In this document: piece after piece, positions 6,044 through 26,039 of the stretch
Position numbering within the stretch: position 1 is the first letter of the stretch
Layout: every line of letters begins with the position of its first letter
NCBI GenBank assembly: GCA_025450375.1
Contig: JANWHO010000225.1
Span: 1 to 26,340 of the forward strand
Length of the DNA stretch: 26,340 nucleotides
Reading direction: 5' to 3'
DNA from: Chloroflexota bacterium
GTDB taxonomy: Bacteria > Chloroflexota > UBA5177 > JANWHV01
Made by a program: the position numbers and the translations under genes
The notes under the pieces: model-generated
Database searches by the model: none
The model's input: only the letters and a program-made list of their open reading frames with translations
What the model was told of the DNA's origin: nothing

Positions 6044-7144
6044 CTACTTCATGAACACCTCCTCGTATAGCACGGGCGGGCGTTCAGCCCCAGGTCCGGG
6101 AGTGCGCGTGTCAGGTGCTGCTCCCGGCTGGGGTTCCTCCTCGGTGATGGCGGTCGCCACGGTCGAGCGCCGCACAATCAGGGGGGTGGCGAAGGTAAGG
6201 GCGACCCCAGGAAGCGCTGGATTGCGCACCCGATCGAGGATCGCCTGCATGGCGGATGCGCCCATTTCATACAGCGGCTGGGCGATGGTGGTCAGCGGTG
6301 GGTCGTAGAGCGCGGCCATCGGGATGTTATCGACCCCGATCACCGCCACATCCTCGGGGACGCGCTTTCCCTGTTGCTTCAGGGTGGAAATCACGCCGAT
6401 CGCGATCATGTCGTTGCCCGCGACGATCGCGGTAGGCGATGTGGCCAGGGCCAGCAGACGCCGGGCGCCACTCTGCCCGCTCTCCATATCGAAGGCCGCC
6501 GGGATCATCAGCTCAGGGTCAACGCTGATTCCCCATTCGCCCAAGGCAGTGCGGTAGCCAGCGCGACGTCCGGCGCCCGCGGTATCGAGTGGAGCAATGA
6601 CCCCGATGCGTCGATGACCGAGATCCAGCAGATGTTCCGTCGCATCGTAGCCCGCCCGATGATCATCCACATGCACCGTCACTACCTTCTCGTGACGCGA
6701 CCGACTCTCATTGAGCGCCAGATGGACGCCGCCGGCCACGAGCGCCGCGATCTCGGCGATCGCGATCTCGCCCCCGCCGGTAAAAAACAGTCCAGCCACG
6801 CGCTGACGACGAAGGGCCCGGATGTAGGTATCGAGCTTGGTCTGGTCACCATCCGTATTGCAAAGGAAGACCACATACCCCTCGCGGTGCGCCACATCCT
6901 CGGCCCCGCGTACCATCTCGGGCCAGTACGGGTTGGTGATGCTGGGAACCAGGATGCCGATCGTACGGGTGCGCTTGCTGCGCAGGCTACTCGCCAACTG
7001 GTTGGGCTGGTAGTCAAACTCTTTGATGATCTGGCGTATGCGCGCGCGCGTGGCCTCCGAGATGCCGGCCTTATCGTTGATGACCGCGGACACGGTCTGC
7101 ACCGACACTCCCGCGACTCGTGCGATGTCCACGATTGTCGACAT
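6044..7144 (-). CDS. LacI-family transcriptional regulator
   Basis: Translates to 366 residues. The start at 7144 (MSTIVDIARVAGVSVQTVSA) is set by GGAGG six bases upstream. Residues 3-22 form the LacI helix-turn-helix, followed by the hinge helix (PNQLASSLRSKRTRTIGILV) and a periplasmic-binding-protein-like effector domain (TNPYWPEMVRGAED, DMIAIGVISTLKQQGKRVPEDVAVIGVDN). An unusual proline-rich tail of about 35 residues follows the usual family end (FATPLIVRRST). The gene heads the sugar operon, 77 bp before the binding-protein gene, and its own promoter carries a perfect palindrome, so autoregulation plus control of the operon by a sugar effector is the obvious model. Confidence 0.95.
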   Translation of the reverse strand: MSTIVDIARVAGVSVQTVSAVINDKAGISEATRARIRQIIKEFDYQPNQLASSLRSKRTRTIGILVPSITNPYWPEMVRGAEDVAHREGYVVFLCNTDGDQTKLDTYIRALRRQRVAGLFFTGGGEIAIAEIAALVAGGVHLALNESRSRHEKVVTVHVDDHRAGYDATEHLLDLGHRRIGVIAPLDTAGAGRRAGYRTALGEWGISVDPELMIPAAFDMESGQSGARRLLALATSPTAIVAGNDMIAIGVISTLKQQGKRVPEDVAVIGVDNIPMAALYDPPLTTIAQPLYEMGASAMQAILDRVRNPALPGVALTFATPLIVRRSTVATAITEEEPQPGAAPDTRTPGPGAERPPVLYEEVFMK

Positions 7145-7184
7145 TCCGGCCTCCGCCACGTATGGCACCCGCCGTACGGCACCT

Positions 7185-7204
7185 TTACATGAACGTTCAT
7201 GTAA
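7185..7204. promoter_or_regulatory. LacI-type operator
   Basis: TTACATGAACGTTCATGTAA is a perfect 20-bp palindrome centred on CG (AACGTT core), the form expected for a LacI-family operator. It begins one base after the predicted transcription start of the lacI-type gene and ends about 40 bases before its ATG. Repressor bound here would block both initiation and clearance. Confidence 0.8.
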
Positions 7205-7405: not shown

Positions 7406-8983
7406 TTAGGTAACAGTTTGTGGCACCTCAAATTCAACCCGCGGGTTCTCACGGCCGAGGTCGGAAAGGATGTCGGTAATTCTCTTGCCAAGCCGATTGG
7501 TGAGCCAGTCACGCTGAAAGGCGGAGCCCGTCGCCACGCGCAGCACCAACCCGTCATCGGCGATCACATGGGTAGGCGCGACCATCTCCCGGTAGCTTCT
7601 TTCCGCGATGGTGGCGGCCAGTTCCTCCCGTACCCGCGCCCAAAGAGGATGATCGTCGGGGCTACAGGCCACGGCGCCATGGCTGGGCGCTCCTCCTGGC
7701 GGTCCCGCCCTCCGTGGCCTTCCGGGCTCAGGAGGAGCGTCCGGATGGACCGTATCGTCGAGAAGCTGGACCAGGCAGGCGAAGAAATACGCCATCGGGT
7801 TACTCGTTATGACGCCAACCTGTAGACTGCCGCGCGTGCGTGCCGCCGCTTCGTGCAAGAACCGGATAAACACTGCTGATTCAAGCCCAGAGCAATCAAG
7901 AAGGTGTACTGCCCGCGTGATGGTCGCCCGATTCGATGCGGCATCACGGAACGTTCGGCGGAGCGGTTCCAGGATCGCCGCCACCGCTTTCTCGGCTTCA
8001 TGCGGCGGCACGTCTGGCGCAACATTCCGCCGCGTGGCACGGGAAGAGGATTTCCGGAATGACCGATTTGGCGCTTGCGGTCGCACCAAGGCGTCGCATG
8101 CGCCGGCGGGACTGGAGTCTCCTGGGGCGATGTGCCCAGTGAGTCCAGCTGGAGACTGGCTATCCTGGGGCGGTGAATCCGGCTTGTCGCGGCATGGCTC
8201 TTCACCGCGGATAGCTGAGCGTAACCGCATCCGTTGGGACGCAAGCAGGGTAATTGGCGCCTTCGCCACAGGCATTGATTCCGCTTGACAGGAGTCGAGT
8301 CGAATCGAATGACTTCTTTTCTGTGTCTTGTCCGCTGGGTGTACGTAGTGTCCGCTACCCAAGACAACCGGTTGGCCCAGACTCGGGACTTGCTGATATC
8401 CGATTTGGGGGACATCAGGCGATGAAACTGGCTCCTTGGCCAACAACGCGACATCTGCCAGCTTCGGCAGGATATAGAGATTTGTTTGCCCGAGGCCACG
8501 CCGGATTACCCGCACCATGCCGCTGTCCTTCAATTCCTTGAGATAGCGGATGACCGCCTTGCGCTCTACACCGAGATCCTCACTTAGGCGCTCTTGCCCG
8601 GGGAAGCAACTGCCCTCCTGCCATGCGTAGCCCAGTAAGAGGGCGTAGGTGAGCTTGGCGCCGTGCGTCAAGCCCCTGGCGAAGAGCAGCTGGTTCGGTA
8701 CAAGCGTAAACCCGGATCGATGAGCGGTGTCCTGGACGACAATGGTAGGGCGGTCGCGATCCTGCTCCTCTCGCGCGGTGGTTCCCCCGGTCCTAGCGGA
8801 CCCTATCCCTGGTGGGCGCCAGGTCAGGGCGACTTGCCCTTGTGCGCACCCCTCGGAGGCGCGCGATTGCTGGCTGGCGTCTGGCCCGCTGGGGTAGTCT
8901 TGCGATTGGTCGGGTGTTGGTCTGGCGGCACGCTCGCGCTCGCATCGCGGACTTCGGTCGCGTATTCTCGCCTGAGCCTGCAC
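7406..8983 (-). CDS. Rep-like protein: winged-helix domain plus DnaA domain-I-like C-terminus
   Basis: The preferred start is GTG at 8983, with GAAAGGGA seven bases upstream (525 residues). The same frame is open to a GTG at 9031, but that has no ribosome site. Residues about 94-172 form a winged helix of the kind found in plasmid replication proteins (LTYALLLGYAWQEGSCFPGQ, LSEDLGVERKAVIRYLKEL, wing MVRVIRRGLGQTNLYIL). A low-complexity linker and a helical region follow. The last 81 residues resemble DnaA domain I (HPLWARVREELAATIAERSY, LVLRVATGSAFQRDWL, RVEFEV). In DnaA this domain binds the helicase and DiaA/HobA-type partners. No AAA+ ATPase lies between. The gene starts just beyond the iteron array, so a role as origin-binding initiator or helicase-loading adaptor is inferred, not shown. 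Confidence 0.75.
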   Translation of the reverse strand: MQAQARIRDRSPRCERERAARPTPDQSQDYPSGPDASQQSRASEGCAQGQVALTWRPPGIGSARTGGTTAREEQDRDRPTIVVQDTAHRSGFTLVPNQLLFARGLTHGAKLTYALLLGYAWQEGSCFPGQERLSEDLGVERKAVIRYLKELKDSGMVRVIRRGLGQTNLYILPKLADVALLAKEPVSSPDVPQIGYQQVPSLGQPVVLGSGHYVHPADKTQKRSHSIRLDSCQAESMPVAKAPITLLASQRMRLRSAIRGEEPCRDKPDSPPQDSQSPAGLTGHIAPGDSSPAGACDALVRPQAPNRSFRKSSSRATRRNVAPDVPPHEAEKAVAAILEPLRRTFRDAASNRATITRAVHLLDCSGLESAVFIRFLHEAAARTRGSLQVGVITSNPMAYFFACLVQLLDDTVHPDAPPEPGRPRRAGPPGGAPSHGAVACSPDDHPLWARVREELAATIAERSYREMVAPTHVIADDGLVLRVATGSAFQRDWLTNRLGKRITDILSDLGRENPRVEFEVPQTVT

Positions 8984-9104
8984 GTTGACGTCCCTTTCTT
9001 CACCTATCACGCGGCGGGAACATACCCGCACCGTGGCGGAACCTGGTGTTCGCCGCCTCTATTCTGACATGTACCACCGGTAGCGCCGTGATGAAGGCCC
9101 GTGG

Positions 9105-9121: not shown

Positions 9122-9160
9122 ATAGGGAAGCCGTTTTCTCTGGCTGAGCGTCACACCTCG

Positions 9161-9210
9161 TGAGGGATTCCGCCACAGTCCATGAGGGATTCCGCCACGG
9201 CCCGTGAGGG
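9161..9210 (+). repeat. Tandem 22-bp units sharing the iteron TGAGGG block
   Basis: Two 22-bp units start at 9161 and 9183 with TGAGGGATTCCGCCAC and differ at only three positions near their ends. A third TGAGGG at 9205 begins the next period. The first unit starts inside iteron 1, and the third TGAGGG runs directly into iteron 2 at 9210, so half-iterons are packed between the first two full iterons. Confidence 0.7.
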
Positions 9211-9322
9211 CGTCACATCAGATGAGGGTGAAAAGCACGGTGTCACCGCTCCTTTGTCAGATCCATGCGACCGCGTCACACCTGATGAGGGGCGCCGAGC
9301 GTTTCCCCTTGTCGGAAGGACA

Positions 9323-9331
9323 GGTGGACAA
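9323..9331 (+). promoter_or_regulatory. Candidate DnaA box in the iteron gap
   Basis: GGTGGACAA matches eight of nine bases of TGTGGACAA, the reverse complement of the high-GC bacterial DnaA box TTGTCCACA. It lies in the 187-bp gap between iterons 3 and 4, where a host DnaA site would be expected in an iteron origin. One nine-base match can occur by chance. Confidence 0.4.
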
Positions 9332-9615
9332 TCGGACGGTGCTCTGAGCGATCAGATGCCGCCGTGCCCGGGCAACCGGGCCTTTACGGCTCTCGATGCC
9401 CAGCCGAATGGGCTCGCATACCGTTCATTCGCGCGACACTGTCGGCGGGCGGTAGCAATGCGTCACACCGAATGAGGGATAAAGAGGAAATTCTCACCAA
9501 CGAACAAGGCGGCGTCACACCCGATGAGGGGGATGCGCGCACGGGCATCCAATCAAAACGTCTGCTGCAACAACCCTGACCCGGTGGCGTCACATCCGAT
9601 GAGGGATACCACTGT

Positions 9616-11433
9616 CTAAACCGTCTGTCGCGGCGCACGGCGCTTACTCGCCGCCACCTCTAAGCGATGCCGCCTGGCAATGCCCGCGTACTGATCGGTC
9701 ACCGCCCGGGGCGGCATCACGCGCACCGTGCGGGTGATCCACTCGGCGAACACGGCCGTGGGATTCACCTCCATCACCAGGCGCACGTATTCCCAACTTG
9801 CCAGCACACCGTCCTCCCGCAGGCGGTCCATGGCCCGCTCGAAGTTCTCGATCAATCGCCTGCGCTGTTCTCGGTGCGTCGGAATCTCAATCCCGGTGCT
9901 CTCCAACAGGGTTGTCATATTCCATGGCTGGTCGAAATTGCCCTGTGCCGCTCGGAACCGCCAATGCAGGGCCAGATGAAGACCAATGCGCATGGCGATC
10001 AACTCCACGCCCTGTCTGGGGTTGTAGCGCAGGACGGGAGAGAGCAACACAGCCACGTAGCGGGTACCTTCCTCAATCAGTGGTTTGATCCACTCACCCG
10101 GCGCGATGCGGAAGGCATAGGGAGTGTCCTCCCCCAGTAGGTTGGTTTCGTCCTCCTGCGCCACCTCAAGCAGGCGGGAGCGCACCTTTACGATCTTGCG
10201 GCGACCGCGCGCATCGTACACGACCTGTGGCCCGCGAATGAAGATGGAATTCAGCGCCCAGACATCATTGGCCACCTTCTCCTTTTGTGCTGGTCTATAC
10301 GCGCCCTTGTTGCGCTTGACCCCCTGGAATTCCAGCAGTGCGTTGGCTGTCACCGTGACCTTGGGCATGTGCGCGTCACCGCCGCCGGTGCCGGCAAACC
10401 AGGAGCCAAGCGCGATGGCGAAGGCGCGCACCTTATCGTCGTCCAGACCGAGCACGGCCTCATAGGCCGCCGCTTCCTGCTCGGGAGTCAAGGGGCTCCG
10501 GCCATCGGACGGGTGGAGCAGCACTTTGACCCGATCAGCCTCTGCTACCCCCTCATGCAGTTCCTCGTAATACGGCGGATTGCCGTTGCCGGGGCGCATC
10601 CATCGGCCAGGCATACGCATGGCGCGGAAGGTGTGGGGTAGGAGCGTACTCGAACCGATGGCGACATTATCTTGATCCAGGATTGAGGGGGCCGGCATGG
10701 CGGGACGCGCGGATGGATGTGTCGGTGCGGGGAGCGTCGGTCGTGGCGCTTCTCCCGGCGGCAGCGCGGCAAGCTCGCCCCACCGACGTGGCGGCAGCAT
10801 CAGGGTCCGCACATCGGGCGCTTCGTCGCACAGGGGGTAGTCGGGCGAGGCGTCCCAGCAGAGTTGCTCACCCCGTACGTAGAGCGCCACATACCGCGTG
10901 ACTGGCCGCTGTAGGGCTTGTAGCTCGGGCTGCTGATCCGCTCGCCAGGTCATCCAGGGCAGGAGCTCCTGGCTGGTCTTCTTTTGCAACTTGGTTGGGA
11001 GGACAAACGGCGGCTCGTCCCCGCCAGGCAGGCGGCAGGTGAGAATATGCAAGGAATTCTCGCGTGGGGGCTCGCCGTCCTCCGTCCAGATGAACAGCAT
11101 CGCATTGTGCCATGGATCGCCGGCAAGTGCGCCCCGCTGCTCCCGTAAGGTGACGTACGATCGCCATTGAGCGAAGAACACGTCGAGCATGTCCACGGAA
11201 TGACTGCCCGGCAGCCCCAATTGCTCCAGTGCCTCCAGCACGGCATCGACGTGAGCACGGGCGCCATCCGGATCCGTGGCGAGCTGTTCTTGCGCGCGAT
11301 CCAACTCAGAGCGAAAGGCGCCCAACCCGCCCTTGGTAGTCCCCGCTGCCGCCGTTCTCAGGAGATCGCGAGCATAATCGAGGGCCATCCGCGCCTCATG
11401 GGCAGTGTGTGGGCCGTTATCTTCCTCAGCCAT
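9616..11433 (-). CDS. Uncharacterised 605-residue protein in the initiator position after parAB
   Basis: ATG at 11433 with GGGAAGG upstream. I do not recognise a named family. The first 120 residues are helical and acidic. The middle (about 120-300) is rich in tryptophan and proline. Residues about 330-570 look like a DNA-binding initiator fold: LLEFQGVKRNKGAYRPAQKE, FRIAPGEWIKPLIEEG, then MRIGLHLALHWRFRAAQGNF followed by MTTLLESTGIEIPTHREQRR and MDRLREDGVLASWEYV, a pattern typical of a winged helix. The C-terminus is basic (ASKRRAPRQTV). It follows parB by about 200 bp and ends eleven bases before the last iteron, so its position matches repC in repABC replicons. A role as replication initiator is an inference from place and fold pattern. 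Confidence 0.7.
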   Translation of the reverse strand: MAEEDNGPHTAHEARMALDYARDLLRTAAAGTTKGGLGAFRSELDRAQEQLATDPDGARAHVDAVLEALEQLGLPGSHSVDMLDVFFAQWRSYVTLREQRGALAGDPWHNAMLFIWTEDGEPPRENSLHILTCRLPGGDEPPFVLPTKLQKKTSQELLPWMTWRADQQPELQALQRPVTRYVALYVRGEQLCWDASPDYPLCDEAPDVRTLMLPPRRWGELAALPPGEAPRPTLPAPTHPSARPAMPAPSILDQDNVAIGSSTLLPHTFRAMRMPGRWMRPGNGNPPYYEELHEGVAEADRVKVLLHPSDGRSPLTPEQEAAAYEAVLGLDDDKVRAFAIALGSWFAGTGGGDAHMPKVTVTANALLEFQGVKRNKGAYRPAQKEKVANDVWALNSIFIRGPQVVYDARGRRKIVKVRSRLLEVAQEDETNLLGEDTPYAFRIAPGEWIKPLIEEGTRYVAVLLSPVLRYNPRQGVELIAMRIGLHLALHWRFRAAQGNFDQPWNMTTLLESTGIEIPTHREQRRRLIENFERAMDRLREDGVLASWEYVRLVMEVNPTAVFAEWITRTVRVMPPRAVTDQYAGIARRHRLEVAASKRRAPRQTV

Positions 11434-11619: not shown

Positions 11620-11635
11620 TGTCGGATTTCCGACA
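11620..11635. promoter_or_regulatory. parS: parS-like centromere palindrome, copy 1
   Basis: TGTCGGATTTCCGACA on the plus strand (TGTCGGAAATCCGACA on the minus strand): seven-base arms around a two-base centre, starting one base beyond the parB stop codon. An identical 16-mer lies at 13798-13813 upstream of parA. Chromosomal parS sites are also 16-bp TGT...ACA palindromes, and ParB proteins bind such sites next to their own genes. Confidence 0.65.
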
Positions 11636-11636
11636 C

Positions 11637-12770
11637 TCAGCTTGGCCCATCAGCACGTTGCTCTCGTTCAACCATGCCGCGCTCTTGCAGCAGTTCCTGC
11701 AAGGCTACCTGCCATTGCAGATGATATGCCCTGCCGTAGGCAAGGAGGTCGAGTACTGCCTGGAATTCAGGGTCCGGGAAGCGCGCGACCCGGCGCAGTC
11801 CGTCCCGGGCCGCCGCGCGCGCCTCGGCGGCGCCACGACCTACATGATATTGCGCGGAGTGCTCGATTTCGTGCGGTTGATTCTGGTTGGGGACGCCGGC
11901 GTTCCTGGCGCTCGTGTCAACGGGCGTTACAAAGACCGTGGCCGGCTCGTCCGCATCCTGGCCGGGATGGGCGACCGGGATGCCATCCCATTCGGGGAAG
12001 TCGGGTGATCGTGGCGGCAGGCCGTTGTGGGTCACCCTGGCTGCCAGGCGAGCTACGTCGGCCGCCGTGCGTATATGCCGCTGCCGAACGGCGGCCAGGA
12101 TCTCCTGCCGCGCTGGCGGCGGTTGCTTTGCAATGGCGGCGCCGACGCTGGTGTTGATGACCTCACTTCGTACAAGGGTCGCCACTTCCTCGTCGCGCGC
12201 CACGCCGAGCAATTCGGAGATGTCTGAGTGATGGCGCCCGATACGCCTGGCGATTTCACGGGCGGAGAAGCGGTAGGCGCGGCTGATATAGAGGACGGCA
12301 TCCATGAGCTCGGCCCGGGTAAGATCCTCCCGGGCGGCGTTCTCGGTCAATGCGTCGAGATAGGTTTGATCCGCCGACCTTTCCTCGATCACGCAGGGTA
12401 GGGCGTCGATATGGACGCTCACTCCGGGCACACCGCCATCATTCAACAATTGCACGGCCCCGAGGCGGCGGCTGCCGGCGGTGACGATGTAGAATCCGGC
12501 GTTGTCGGGATGCCGGCGCACTACCAGGTTTTGCAGCACATGTCCGGTCTCGGCGATGGACGCCGCCAGTTCCTCAAGATGAGTAATCTGGCGTCGCGGG
12601 TTGTTGGGGTTGGGTGAGAGGCGCTGAATGGGAATCAGGTAGGCGTCGGCCATGCGCTGAAACGACCCCTCCGCTGCCTTGACGTCGTTGTCGTATGGTG
12701 TGCCACCCTGATCGTCGCCCAGGAGATCAGCGGCGAACTGGATTTCCCGCCGCCTCTTAGCCGAGGGCAT
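11637..12770 (-). CDS. parB: ParB-family partition protein
   Basis: Translates to 377 residues. The ATG at 12770 overlaps the end of parA by 14 bp and has AAGGAA upstream; a longer in-frame extension runs backwards through parA and is rejected. Residues 45-145 are the ParB/Srx N-terminal domain (IPIQRLSPNPNNPRRQ, NLVVRRHPDNAGFYIVTAGS, LTENAAREDLTRAELMDAV). Residues about 168-190 are the helix-turn-helix (FSAREIARRIGRHHSDISEL). The CTP-box motif usually written GERR is GSRR here (99-102). The protein should load onto the parS-like palindromes flanking parAB and stimulate ParA for segregation. The C-terminal 100 residues are divergent, as is usual. Confidence 0.92.
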   Translation of the reverse strand: MPSAKRRREIQFAADLLGDDQGGTPYDNDVKAAEGSFQRMADAYLIPIQRLSPNPNNPRRQITHLEELAASIAETGHVLQNLVVRRHPDNAGFYIVTAGSRRLGAVQLLNDGGVPGVSVHIDALPCVIEERSADQTYLDALTENAAREDLTRAELMDAVLYISRAYRFSAREIARRIGRHHSDISELLGVARDEEVATLVRSEVINTSVGAAIAKQPPPARQEILAAVRQRHIRTAADVARLAARVTHNGLPPRSPDFPEWDGIPVAHPGQDADEPATVFVTPVDTSARNAGVPNQNQPHEIEHSAQYHVGRGAAEARAAARDGLRRVARFPDPEFQAVLDLLAYGRAYHLQWQVALQELLQERGMVEREQRADGPS

Positions 12771-13689
12771 CGAAGAGTTCCTTCGCAGCGGCGTCATACC
12801 CCGTGGCGCGCAAATCGACACGCGCGATGCTATTCGCCCGCGGGATAGGGGGAAGCACATGGAGCGGCGCGTAGTGCTGGGCGGCAATCTGTCCGATAAG
12901 CTCAAGCATATCGCGGTGCAAGGCATTGCGCTTTTCCACGATCGTGGGGAGCACGGCCAGCAACCGCAACCGCGGATTGGTCGTGCGGCGCAGTCCCTCG
13001 ATCAGGCGCAGATACTGCGAGAGGTTGGCCACCCCCTGCTTTTCCGCCAGCACTGGCACGACCAGAAGGTCAGCGTCCCGCAACGCATCCAGGGCCGCGA
13101 GCCCGGGCGGTGTGTCGACGAGGACCATGCGATAGCCCTGCGCCGGCGCGGGGACATTGCTTCCCTCCAGTAAGCGTACACCGGGCGCGATCACGTCTGG
13201 ATCGAGGCGCGCAAGGACCGAGAGATTCTGAGCTTCGTCGCGATCCAGGATACATACGGTTGGGTGTTCCGGCGTGCTGCCAAAATGCGCCGCCGCGCGC
13301 GCGGCAAGATAGAGGGTAGTGGTGGTTTTGGCAACCCCGCCTTTCTGGGCGCCGATCGCGAGCGTATAGGTGGTCCGCGGCCTTGGGTGAGCCCCTGGAG
13401 AGGCGGCAGGGCGCGGACTGGACGCCTGCCCAGGCAGCCCCGCCGGTTTCCTGGGCGCCGGGGGCTCGGAGATCACGGCCCGTGGTCTGCCAACGTGTCG
13501 CTCAGTCACCATACCCAAGTCCGCTTTCTCGATCAGCCATTCACGGCCTATCTTGATTGCTGGGAGCCGTTGGCCGCGTATGAGCGCCAGGACGCGAGAC
13601 CGACTGATGGTCAGGGCCTCGGCGACATTCGCCGTACTCAGGAGTTCGGTCGTCCCAGCGCGCGACACCCTACCTTCTTGTGCAGTCAT
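12757..13689 (-). CDS. parA: ParA-family partition ATPase with N-terminal excisionase-type helix-turn-helix
   Basis: Translates to 310 residues from ATG 13689 (MTAQEGRVSRAGTTELL). Residues 15-57 match the MerR/excisionase DNA-binding fold (LLSTANVAEALTISRSRVLA, LPAIKIGREWLIEKADL). A proline-rich linker leads to the ParA/MinD ATPase: deviant Walker A KGGVAKTTT (116-124), the switch region CILDRDEAQN, and Walker B VLVDTPPG. In P1-type ParA an unrelated N-terminal HTH mediates autorepression; here the analogous job may be done by an excisionase-like domain. ATP-dependent DNA binding by ParA drives plasmid positioning with ParB. An open frame continues upstream to 14082 but only reads through the antisense of recD2 remains. 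Confidence 0.92.
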   Translation of the reverse strand: MTAQEGRVSRAGTTELLSTANVAEALTISRSRVLALIRGQRLPAIKIGREWLIEKADLGMVTERHVGRPRAVISEPPAPRKPAGLPGQASSPRPAASPGAHPRPRTTYTLAIGAQKGGVAKTTTTLYLAARAAAHFGSTPEHPTVCILDRDEAQNLSVLARLDPDVIAPGVRLLEGSNVPAPAQGYRMVLVDTPPGLAALDALRDADLLVVPVLAEKQGVANLSQYLRLIEGLRRTTNPRLRLLAVLPTIVEKRNALHRDMLELIGQIAAQHYAPLHVLPPIPRANSIARVDLRATGYDAAAKELFDALG

Positions 13690-13694
13690 GGAAG

Positions 13695-13700
13695 AAACTA
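13695..13700 (-). promoter_or_regulatory. -10 element of parA (possibly leaderless mRNA)
   Basis: TATAGT lies seven bases before the parA ATG on the minus strand, which would place the transcription start at or next to the start codon. No Shine-Dalgarno sequence is visible before this ATG, in contrast with most genes here. No convincing -35 is present. Confidence 0.45.
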
Positions 13701-13731
13701 TACGCGCGGTGGTTGAGTATTGCCAGGGGTT

Positions 13732-13740
13732 TGTGGACAA
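13732..13740 (-). promoter_or_regulatory. DnaA box upstream of parA
   Basis: On the minus strand the sequence reads TTGTCCACA, the consensus DnaA box of high-GC bacteria. It lies about 43 bases upstream of the parA ATG, between the parS-like palindrome and the -10 element. It may couple partition-gene expression to DnaA or replication, or be coincidental. Confidence 0.45.
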
Positions 13741-13797
13741 GATGCATGGATTTTCGCCCTGGCCCGAGCGGTATCCCGTGCAAAAAGGGTCAGATGC

Positions 13798-13813
13798 TGT
13801 CGGAAATCCGACA
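13798..13813. promoter_or_regulatory. parS: parS-like centromere palindrome, copy 2
   Basis: TGTCGGAAATCCGACA on the plus strand, seven-base arms around AA, about 110 bp upstream of the parA start. It is the same 16-bp site as at 11620-11635 but in opposite orientation of the two-base centre. It could also act as a ParB/ParA-controlled operator for parAB. Confidence 0.65.
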
Positions 13814-13850: not shown

Positions 13851-14992
13851 TCACCGCCGCAGGGGCCCGATCACGTCCTCGCCTCGCCGGTGACACGGCG
13901 CCGCAACTGGAGCGGTGGACCAGTACGGTGGCCCGCCCGGCCGCAACTGGAGCAGCCGGTGCAGCATCGCGGCTTCCATGCCCGCGAGTTCGGCAAGGCG
14001 TTTGGCGGCGCGACGAGGACGACCCTGGCCCGTTTCGCCCGGGCCAGGGTGACAATGGAGCGCACGGTGAAGCTCTTCCCACAGCCCGGGCCGCCAGTGA
14101 GCACCGCCACCTTCTCGGTCAGGGCCAGACGGACTGCCGCGCCCTGTTCGGGCGCCAGCGTGCTCCTGGTCGTACGCTGCAACCATGTCATAGCCGCCTC
14201 CCAGTCCACACGCTGAAAAGTCGGTAAGCGCTCGGTCGATGCCTGCAGCAGACGGCGGAGTCCGTGCGCCAATGACACCTCGGCGCGGTAGAACGGCACC
14301 AGGTAGACGGCCGGGATTGTCGCGCCGCCCGCAGGGCCTGGGAGATACTCCGTGATTACCCCTTCCTCCTCCGAGAGATCCGTCAGGCAGGTCTCGACAA
14401 GCACCGACTCCACGGTGAGAATCGCCGTTGCGGTGGCGATCAGGGCGGCTTGCGGGAGATAGTAGTGACCTTCGTTGCTGGCCTCCGAAAGCGTGAACTG
14501 GAGTCCCACCTTGACCCGTTGGGGGGCTATCGTGCGGGATGCCCATCGCCTGCGCAATCGTGTCGACGGTCTTGAAGCCGATGGCCCACACATCTCCGGC
14601 CAGCTTGTAGGGCTCGTTCTTGGCCACGGAGATACTGGCGTCCCTGTAGGTCTTATAGATGCGCACGACGAGCGAGGTGGACACTCCCACCCCCTGGAGA
14701 AAGAGCATGACCTCCTTGATCGCCTTCTGTTCCTCCCAGGCCCGACCGATCATCGACGTGCGCTTGGATCCCAAGCCCAGCACCACTCTGGATGCGACTT
14801 CCAGACACCGCGCAGGCGGAGACTCTCGCCCGGCTGTGCGCCAAGCAGGGAGCCGACCACGGTAAGCAGGCCACTGCCGCCCTGTGCGGTGGCGACGCGG
14901 GCGACGGTATAGCCGGTCTCCTCATTGGCGTAGGTGATCCGTTCCAGGACTGCATCGAGGGTCGCAAAATGCACCTGCGGGGCTGTGCTCAT
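13851..14992 (-). pseudogene. recD2: RecD2-type DNA helicase, decayed and truncated
   Basis: Three reading frames together spell parts of the RecD2 (YrrC-like) helicase. From 14992, frame one gives the N-terminal OB region (VLERITYANEETGYTVARVA, LLTVVGSLLGAQPGESLRL). After a jump that skips roughly 60 residues, a second frame (about 14780-14520) gives the helix-hairpin-helix region (IGRAWEEQKAIKEVMLFLQG, DVWAIGFKTVDTIAQAMGI). A third frame (about 14530-14030) holds the ATPase start with Walker A (VAVLTGGPGCGKSFTVRSIV), and the frame then switches back to AAKRLAELAGMEAAMLHRLL. Everything after helicase motif Ia, more than 300 residues, is absent. Multiple frameshifts, an internal deletion and the missing core motifs make this a dead gene. 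Confidence 0.85.
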
Positions 14993-24900: not shown

Positions 24901-25377
24901 TTATCCCGGCGCAAGCCGCAGGACGGCCTCCATCACCTCGGCGCGACTGAGATCTTGCCGCGCCATGTTCTCGGCCAGGGTGTCGGCAAAGGCATCCGAG
25001 TCTACCTCGTCCGCGACGCACGGAAGCGTCGCCACCCACTGCTGACTGGCGGGAAGATCCCCTTGGTACACAAGGAGAGCGGCCATCAAGCGGCGCGACC
25101 CGGCAATCGTTACATAATAGCCAGGCCGCTCGGGGTCGCGCCGCACCACAAGCGGTTGCAGGAGGCCCCGATCCCCGGTTGAGGCCGCGAGATCCGCCAA
25201 ACCCTCGAAGGACTTCCGAGGGTTATCTGGATTAGGGGCAATACGCTCGATGGGAATCCGCAGGGCGCGAGACATGGGGACAAACGAGGCATCGGCGGCG
25301 GTGATCGGCCCGGTGCCTGACTCCTCAAGCATCTGCCGGACCAGCAGGTCAGGGCGCGAGCGAGGCGATGAGGCCAC
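24901..25377 (-). pseudogene. Truncated second ParB (N-terminal domain only)
   Basis: 158 residues from a GTG at 25377 with AAAGGAG seven bases upstream. The ParB N-terminal domain is complete (LRIPIERIAPNPDNPRKSFE, LQPLVVRRDPERPGYYVTIA, GSRR, LAENMARQDLSRAEVMEAVL), then the frame ends in LRLAPG and TAA exactly where the helix-turn-helix begins in the full-length ParB at 11637-12770. No continuation of the DNA-binding domain is found in other frames up to 24840. The GTG lies within the end of the upstream parA remnant, as in the intact pair. It is a paralogue, not a copy: the two share pattern but many residues differ. It is probably a remnant, though a short stable protein remains possible. 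Confidence 0.75.
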
Positions 25378-25560
25378 CGAATATCTCCTTTGCCGGCGCG
25401 TCATAATCCGGCGCGCCAAGGTCGTACTGCGCGATGCGGGCGCGTCGGGGAACGGGCGAAAGCATGGTCAAGGGCGGCCGATGCGCTGCCAAATGTACTG
25501 GTCCAGTAGGAGTTCTCCGTTGCTCAGTCCCAGACGCGGCGCATAACGAAGGACAAGGTT
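25349..25560 (-). pseudogene. Remnant of a second ParA (C-terminal end, frameshifted)
   Basis: The final frame ends LTMLSPVPRRARIAQYDLGA then PDYDAPAKEIFGGLIASLAP, which aligns position by position with the end of the intact ParA (HVLPPIPRANSIARVDLRAT, YDAAAKELFDALG). Just upstream (about 25471-25560) another frame reads VLRYAPRLGLSNGELLLDQ and breaks at a TGA at 25468-25470, consistent with a frameshift in the preceding helices. Walker A and B regions are missing; nothing ParA-like is found to the right of about 25560. Confidence 0.65.
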
Positions 25561-26039
25561 GCTGCTCAAAATTGCCGGGCGACGCGCGGAGGAGCGATGA
25601 ATCCGGATGAGCCCGGACGCTTCCCTTCATGGGGATTGTGGCTTACGAAAAGTACGTGCTGAGCGGAGAGGTGGGTATTCGCGACTCTGGCGAGCTTCGC
25701 GTCTGGGGGGATTGGACAATCCGTCGAGACGCGGTAGCCCATGTGCCGAGTTGAGAGGGCAACTGCACATAGTGAGATACCCTCCCTTGTTGTTAGTTGG
25801 TTGGGGCTGGCGAGCATGGGTAGAGGAGTTATTTACTATGTGCAGGAACGGTCAAAGGCCCCGCGCACGCCCGGTTGTGCCGCCTGGATTTCGGACTATA
25901 GCGGATCGCCGTCATTGGATGGTACGGGATACGCAAGATCACCTATCCTTTGTCCTGAGCGCACAACTCGTTTAGGGATCGAGCCCCAACAGTACCTGGG
26001 TAGCCTTTTGCGCCCACGCGGGGGAGTTAGCTGTCTGCC
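25561..26039. other. No recognisable gene (about 480 bp)
   Basis: Short frames on both strands show no family resemblance and no good ribosome site. The stretch lies between the parA remnant and the kinase remnant and probably consists of decayed or shuffled sequence. Confidence 0.45.

What the first reader, a model, noticed from the sequence alone, without database searches (positions are those of the whole stretch)
11620..13813. Identical 16-bp palindromes bracket parAB: a parS-like centromere pair
TGTCGGA-(2 bp)-TCCGACA occurs one base after the parB stop and about 110 bp upstream of parA. I noticed no other full copy in the window. Length and TGT...ACA ends match the format of chromosomal parS, but the arms are different, so this would be a distinct ParB specificity. 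Placing one site on each side of the operon is an unusual layout.
Basis: partly seen in the sequence, partly recalled or inferred. Interest (0 to 1): 0.75.

Follow-up and report, generated by a model that had tools for sequence, protein, structure and literature searches.

The report
Plasmid centromere sites flanking parAB
Two copies of a 16-letter DNA palindrome on either side of a bacterial plasmid's partition genes are very probably the docking sites of its own ParB protein, with a sequence different from the usual one; the layout itself turns out to be ordinary.

Summary
TGTCGGA-nn-TCCGACA occurs twice, at 11620-11635 and 13798-13813, one base after the parB stop and 108 bp before parA; no other site lies within 3 mismatches. 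Only 6 of 3000 simulated windows contain any repeated 7+2+7 palindrome.

Relatives support the parS reading. The same arms sit at parAB in two IMG/VR lineages and, with one outer base changed, in Nitrosococcus plasmids. Of 25 parAB loci (window included), 11 carry a repeated 16-bp palindrome within 600 bp, against 0.06 expected; all 11 have a GA-nn-TC core and six have sites on both sides. In two Skermanella plasmids the only two copies flank parAB. Arm bases follow ParB recognition residues in 12 pairs (position 2 with residue 173, position 5 with 178). The window's E178/G5 fits; its His173 is new. Some viral loci do not fit.

Most likely a type I ParABS centromere pair of non-canonical specificity beside an iteron origin. 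The "unusual layout" claim fails. Binding was not measured, and the rest of the replicon could not be read.

The parts
11620..11635 (.). parS-like palindrome, site 1, one base downstream of the parB stop and about 187 bp upstream of the rep start
   Evidence: exact match
13798..13813 (.). parS-like palindrome, site 2, inverted copy of site 1, 108 bp upstream of the parA start
   Evidence: exact match
11637..12770 (-). parB (377 aa): ParB_N domain, ParB-type helix-turn-helix, long low-confidence linker, C-terminal helices
   Evidence: (PF02195)
12195..12239 (-). ParB residues 178-192 (GRHHSDISELLGVAR): turn and recognition helix; H181, E186, R192 correspond to Caulobacter 173, 178, 184
   Evidence: alignments; helix 181-192 in the model; residues 169-188 invariant in two 80-82% relatives
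12757..13689 (-). parA (310 aa): N-terminal HTH_17 domain plus deviant Walker ATPase (KGGVAKTT)
   Evidence: PF12728, PF13614, PF01656
13697..13726 (-). weak sigma-70-like promoter match before parAB; site 2 lies about 70 bp upstream of its -35 box
   Evidence: 9 of 12 matches; 2 such matches found in the region, 0.5 expected by chance
9616..11433 (-). putative replication initiator (605 aa, no Pfam family), same strand as parAB
   Evidence: role inferred from the adjacent iterons
9148..9610 (+). iteron array (GCGTCACACCnGATGAGGG-like, at least 5 copies): likely replication origin (inferred)
   Evidence: families D1-D3
7406..9031 (-). second replication-type protein (541 aa, HTH_36 and DnaA_N domains)

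Best explanation
The two palindromes are the centromere (parS-type) sites of the ParABS partition system encoded between them, on an iteron-type plasmid or megaplasmid of a Chloroflexota bacterium. A ParB dimer binds each 16-bp site, one helix-turn-helix per half-site. It most likely then loads as a CTP-dependent clamp and spreads over the par-rep region, and ParA-ATP on the nucleoid pulls sister plasmids apart. The arms belong to a parS class with a G-A-nn-T-C core (usually GACGTC) read by plasmid ParBs. Within that class, arm base 2 tends to follow the residue at Caulobacter position 173 and base 5 residue 178. Shown here: the sites, the domains, recurrence of the arms at other parAB loci, and the residue-base agreement in 12 pairs. 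Inferred: binding, spreading, segregation and any role of the sites in regulating parAB or rep.
For: Two perfect copies bracketing parAB: 6 of 3000 simulated windows have any repeated 7+2+7 palindrome. In IMG/VR, 4 of 115 loci with these arms had a ParB-profile hit within 1.5 kb; one (L053) is a ParB_N-methylase fusion and is discounted, leaving L014, L114 and L095. With scrambled arms it was 1 weak hit of 120. L014 and its apparent near-copy contig have all four of the contig's copies in a 2.3-kb stretch at parAB; L095 has two copies 12 and 72 bp after parB, the first with one mismatch. Nitrosococcus watsonii and N. halophilus plasmids, reached through ParB similarity and not through the motif, have AGTCGGACGTCCGACT as their only two copies, one inside and one after parB. 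Of 25 parAB loci, 11 have a repeated palindrome family against 0.06 expected. Among 420 residue-base pairs tested over 12 ParBs, the best two are 173 with base 2 (permutation p 0.001) and 178 with base 5 (p 0.0025), both reported DNA-contact positions (PMC7383237 passages). The window's E178 with G5 matches L014 and L259. ParAs of L014 and L259 have no N-terminal HTH, so ParA is an unlikely reader of the site there. The window ParB model matches ParB, Noc and KorB structures (Caulobacter ParB 6t1f E 6e-12; over the DNA-binding domain Noc-NBS 6y93 TMt 0.72, E 0.004, and KorB-operator 1r71 TMt 0.73, E 0.007).
Against: No binding data. The window's ParB is divergent: no Pfam HTH_ParB match and at most 38% identity beyond two close relatives among the hits. 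It has His at 173, paired with G, seen in none of the other 11 ParBs, and AA/TT where those 11 were entered with a C at base 8. The class was found through relatives of the L095 ParB: none of the 5 tested plasmid loci reached with the window's own ParB (L263, L264, L307, L311, L313) gave a family, and in all 14 of 25 loci gave none. In the residue-base test p values are not corrected for 420 comparisons, n is 12, the proteins share ancestry, and L014 and L095 were picked because they carry the arms. K173 pairs with T2 in two loci but G2 in a third. In 80 further viral ParB_N loci a looser script reported a repeated pair in 12; three of them (L324, L337, L371) have R173 beside GACGTC-core sites with T at base 2, against R-with-G if those sites are read in the same register. 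Arms alone are not diagnostic: three IMG/VR contigs (G005-G007) have several TGTCGGAATTCCGACA copies and no ParB_N hit.
Confidence: 0.88

Rival explanations
1. The palindromes are operators, bound by the HTH_17 domain of ParA or by another plasmid regulator, that co-repress the parAB and rep transcription units. Each site lies upstream of a minus-strand unit: parA (108 bp) and rep (about 187 bp).
For: ParA carries an N-terminal HTH_17 domain. Both sites precede a gene on the same strand.
Against: GTCGGA-type sites occur where ParA has no N-terminal HTH (L014, L259). Four other loci have copies inside parB (L014, L258, L259, L394), a poor place for an operator. Arm bases tend to follow ParB residues. 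Site 2 is about 70 bp upstream of the promoter-like match before parA.
Confidence: 0.06
2. ParB does bind the sites, but their main job is gene regulation in the manner of RK2 KorB, coordinating replication and partition, with the centromere elsewhere on the replicon.
For: Site 1 lies between parB and rep. The KorB DNA-binding domain is among the structural matches (1r71, TMt 0.73). Only 26 kb is visible; the same ParB is on a 67.5-kb contig.
Against: Only two copies in the window, both at parAB. In seven relatives' whole plasmids copies lie in the par region, except 1 of 4 in A. argentinense p5. A partition and a regulatory role are not exclusive.
Confidence: 0.05
3. They are RNA hairpins or transcription terminators at the ends of the upstream recD2-like gene and of parB.
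For: The strands can fold short stems with a 4-nt loop at the site. On the minus strand a run of five T begins 11 nt after site 2.
Against: No intrinsic terminator is called at either site, no comparable T-run follows site 1 and folding is not exceptional (z -1.2 to -1.9). Two exact copies of the arms and their recurrence at other parAB loci are not explained.
Confidence: 0.01

Closest known systems
Chromosomal ParB-parS (TGTTTCACGTGAAACA, sequence recalled) and Noc-NBS
   Same: 16-bp palindrome with TGT/ACA ends; ParB_N plus helix-turn-helix protein; residue 173 linked to half-site base 2 (R with G, Q with A), as in the passages of PMC7383237, which number that base 1.
   Different: Arms CGGA instead of TTCA; contact residues Q162, K171, S172, R173, N178 (and G201, R204 by a gapped alignment) are replaced; centre AA/TT instead of CG.
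GACGTC-core parAB loci of Azospirillaceae, Tistrella and Nitrosococcus plasmids
   Same: 16-bp palindromes, mostly repeated, just upstream of parA, inside parB, just downstream of parB, or on both sides; GA..TC core; in the seven plasmids searched whole, copies almost confined to the par region.
   Different: ParB at most 28% identical over the alignment; CG or near-CG centre; of five relatives' ParAs scanned, two have HTH_31 and three no HTH match, none HTH_17.
pB171 par2 (parC1-parA-parB-parC2) and repABC parS
   Same: Centromere sites on both sides of the operon (pB171: construct genotypes in passages of PMC4270457 list the parts in that order; flanking recalled) or inside and beside it (PMC9040568, sections 3 and 7).
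   Different: pB171 ParB is a ribbon-helix-helix protein (recalled); repABC carries rep in the same operon and has GTT..AAC-type sites (site form recalled).
RK2 KorB and its operators
   Same: Plasmid ParB-fold protein with HTH; structural match to its DNA-binding domain (1r71).
   Different: KorB operators are shorter and scattered as long-range repressor sites (recalled; of PMC11790492 only the listing and start of abstract were seen); here there are two sites, both at parAB.

Membership tests
Type I ParABS partition system | ParA-type deviant Walker ATPase | tested here: met
   AAA_31 and CbiA above cut-off; KGGVAKTT motif
Type I ParABS partition system | ParB with ParB_N (CTP-binding) domain and a DNA-binding HTH | tested here: met
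   PF02195 at 40 bits; GSRRLGA and ENAAREDL resemble recalled CTP-site motifs; HTH by alignment and fold. Pfam HTH_ParB itself did not match.
Type I ParABS partition system | parA and parB adjacent, same strand | tested here: met
   parA 12757-13689 and parB 11637-12770 overlap by 14 bp
Type I ParABS partition system | Repeated palindromic site at the operon | tested here: met
Type I ParABS partition system | ParB binds the site; the site is needed for stable inheritance | not testable with these tools
   needs a binding assay and a plasmid-loss assay
Type I ParABS partition system | Site largely confined to the par/origin region of its replicon | tested here: inconclusive
   True in the 26-kb window; no genome held. 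In relatives' whole plasmids: all copies in the par region in 6 of 7, 3 of 4 copies in the seventh.
Canonical chromosomal parS | TGTTTCACGTGAAACA consensus | tested here: not met
   The palindrome differs at positions 4-6 of each arm and in the two central bases (canonical sequence recalled)
Canonical chromosomal ParB DNA reading | ParB-parS contacts Q162, K171, S172, R173, N178, G201, R204 | tested here: not met
   A, R, H, H, E, S, A at aligned positions, the last two by a gapped alignment; G170 is kept. Contact list from PMC7383237 passages.

The most novel reading that the evidence does not exclude
Plasmid ParBs with GA-nn-TC-core centromeres follow a simple readable code: residue 173 sets arm base 2 (Q-A, R-G) and residue 178 sets base 5 (E-G, R-C), with 184 perhaps setting base 4. 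The Chloroflexota ParB is a separate lineage that uses histidine at 173 to read G and has lost the CG centre, an independent route to the same arms as in Nitrosococcus plasmids and IMG/VR elements.
Probability: 0.35. Interest if true: 0.65.

Novelty: new member of a known kind. Interest (0 to 1): 0.45.

Why it matters
How many mutually exclusive ParB-parS pairs exist, and what sets their specificity, decides which replicons can share a cell. This gives a Chloroflexota plasmid pair and, more usefully, a set of about a dozen natural ParB-site pairs in which two recognition residues agree with two arm bases. It is directly testable by binding assays and could supply orthogonal pairs for DNA labelling.

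Tried and rejected
Genome-wide counting of the site: no genome is held for the window. Reaching related Chloroflexota genomes: two genome-contig scans, with ParB and with the Rep alignment, found no relative; a taxonomic search centred on a Herpetosiphon plasmid was not accepted. Viral contigs with ParB: no relative; with the ParA alignment: 13 loci, not pursued.

L053 was first counted as a ParB neighbour; its ORF is a ParB_N-methylase fusion with the palindrome inside, so it is discounted (the methylase part read by eye). L055, L064, L083 and L042 have ParB-like ORFs 2.5-5 kb from the site and are not counted as support. A second motif scan (GTCGGACGTCCGAC, 45 stretches, 7 already held) gave no further parAB loci: the 38 new loci had no ParB- or ParA-profile hit at E 1e-4. 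Three of the 12 disagree with R173-G2; this was weighed on rechecking and lowered the novel case from 0.40 to 0.35. Terminator and hairpin readings were rejected.

Rows dropped before counts. Of 29 plasmid ParB regions fetched, 7 were left out because no adjacent parA was annotated or the record lacks usable annotation (L253, L257, L265, L308, L309, L310, L312); the other 22 plus the window, L014 and L095 make the 25. From the residue test (12 proteins) I left out near-duplicates L304 and L394, and L250 and L251, whose palindromes are imperfect. Sites for L252 and L263 rest on a perfect GACGTC palindrome inside parB without a family, and that of L262 on copies partly outside the 600-bp limit. 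Half-sites were chosen by me, as one 8-base half per locus, so minor site variants (for example GACATC centres) were not entered.

Full report
What is there. The protein listings give 26,340 bp as the contig length for the window's own proteins, so the window may be a whole contig; an identical ParB is on a 67.5-kb contig of a MAG labelled Chloroflexota bacterium. The minus strand carries parA (12757-13689; HTH_17 plus ParA ATPase) and parB (11637-12770; ParB_N), then a 605-aa putative initiator (9616-11433) and an iteron array (9148-9610). TGTCGGATTTCCGACA lies at 11620-11635 and its reverse complement at 13798-13813; nothing else in the window comes within 3 mismatches. Any repeated perfect 7+2+7 palindrome appears in 6 of 3000 simulated windows, and any repeated 7-bp-arm palindrome with spacer 0-8 in 42 of 3000.

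First test: do the arms occur at other parAB loci? The pattern has 115 stretches in IMG/VR, and 107 of them show no ParB-like ORF, so single hits mean little. The strong cases are L014 with the apparently near-identical L114/L090 contig, where all four TGTCGGACGTCCGACA copies of the contig lie at parAB (two inside parB, one 32 bp before parA, one about 875 bp before parA), and L095, with two copies 12 and 72 bp after parB, the first with a mismatch. The fourth locus (L053) is a ParB_N-methylase fusion and is discounted. So the motif-based support rests on two lineages.

Second test: ParB relatives found without the motif. I fetched 29 plasmid regions: 16 through the L095 ParB, 9 through the window's ParB, 3 through L259 and 1 through L014. 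Of 25 parAB loci tested (22 plasmid loci, the window, L014, L095), 11 have a repeated 16-bp palindrome family within 600 bp of parAB; the summed chance expectation is 0.06. All eight plasmid families came through L095 or L259; none of the five tested loci reached with the window's own ParB had one. Nitrosococcus watsonii pNWAT01 and N. halophilus pNHAL01 carry AGTCGGACGTCCGACT inside and after parB, their only copies at up to 1 mismatch in 39 and 66 kb. Skermanella mucosa pSM-3 and S. rosea pSR-3 carry TATTCGACGTCGAATA, in S. rosea with one mismatch at one site, once on each side of parAB and nowhere else in 308 and 329 kb at up to 1 mismatch. In the A. oryzae plasmid all 5 copies lie within 4.6 kb, in A. 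argentinense p5 3 of 4 are at parAB, and in Indioceanicola all 4 within 3.1 kb. Sites on both sides of parAB occur in 6 of the 25 (window, L256, L258, L261, L304, L306).

For 12 ParB-site pairs I tested 420 pairs of alignment column and half-site base. The top two are Caulobacter-equivalent residue 173 with base 2 (Q with A in 4 of 4; R with G in 4 of 4; K with T in 2 and G in 1; the window's H with G) and residue 178 with base 5 (E with G in 3 of 3, the window included; R with C in 4 of 4; five proteins with other residues). Residue 184 with base 4 is third. Permutation p values are 0.001, 0.0025 and 0.003, uncorrected. Passages of Jalal et al. 2020 (PMC7383237) name 173, 178, 184 and 201 as DNA-contact or specificity positions, with R173 linked to parS G and Q173 to NBS A at that base (their base 1). 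The cautions are real: n is small, ancestry is shared, and L014 and L095 were selected by their arms. L259 was not, and it also has E178 and GTCGG. Among 80 further viral ParB_N loci a looser script reported repeated pairs in 12; three of these (L324, L337, L371) have R173 with T at base 2, against the code if they are ParB sites in the same register.

Structure. The AlphaFold model of the window ParB is modest overall (pLDDT 65.6, pTM 0.36) but the ten-residue blocks of residues 41-250 score 71-92. Foldseek finds Caulobacter ParB first (6t1f, E 6e-12) and, lower down, the DNA-binding domains of Noc on NBS (6y93, TMt 0.72) and KorB on its operator (1r71, TMt 0.73). Helix 181-192 is the recognition helix; residues 169-188 are invariant in the two 80-82% relatives.

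Mechanism. The best reading is that ParB dimers bind the two inverted sites and, by analogy with known ParBs, load as CTP clamps and spread across par and rep near the iteron origin, for segregation by ParA. Site 2 lies about 70 bp upstream of the promoter-like match before parA and site 1 lies between parB and rep, so a regulatory side role is possible. ParA is an unlikely reader of the site: ParAs of L014 and L259 have no N-terminal HTH although their sites share the GTCGGA arms.

What is known. Different parS sequences for different replicons, and sites beside or inside par operons, are established (PMC9040568, abstract and sections 3 and 7; pB171 genotypes in PMC4270457 passages). I found no paper describing a GACGTC-core plasmid parS class or a Chloroflexota parS of this kind in searches, which cover only open-licence PMC text and were judged from listings, abstracts and the passages named (also passages of PMC9178275 and PMC13342612). 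The window locus is a new member of a known kind; the residue-base agreement is the part a specialist would want to test.

Noticed in passing
window 7185-7204: Perfect 20-bp palindrome TTACATGAACGTTCATGTAA just upstream of a gene that reads by eye as LacI-type (6044-7168, minus strand); probably its operator.
   Followed up: no
window 24901-25630: Remains of a second parAB: a ParB_N fragment whose frame ends before the HTH, and a frame resembling the C-terminus of ParA P0030 by eye.
   Followed up: partly
window 13851-14786: A RecD2-like helicase is split over two overlapping frames (HHH_RecD2 in one, AAA_19/AAA_30 in the other): a broken gene or a sequencing frameshift.
   Followed up: no
L067/L070, L046/L048/L074, L027: Three IMG/VR contigs carry 2-4 exact copies of TGTCGGAATTCCGACA with no ParB_N match (records may be fragments); another regulator may use nearly the same arms.
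   Followed up: partly
L324, L337, L371, L390: Viral ParB_N proteins have pairs of palindromes such as GTGCAGACGTCTGCAC nearby; three have R173 with T at base 2, unlike the plasmid set.
   Followed up: no
L262:1363-1414 and L262:3894-3909: Indioceanicola plasmid unnamed3 has TGTAAAACGTTTTACA twice upstream of parA and a one-mismatch copy 17 bp after parB: another flanking layout with a different core.
   Followed up: no
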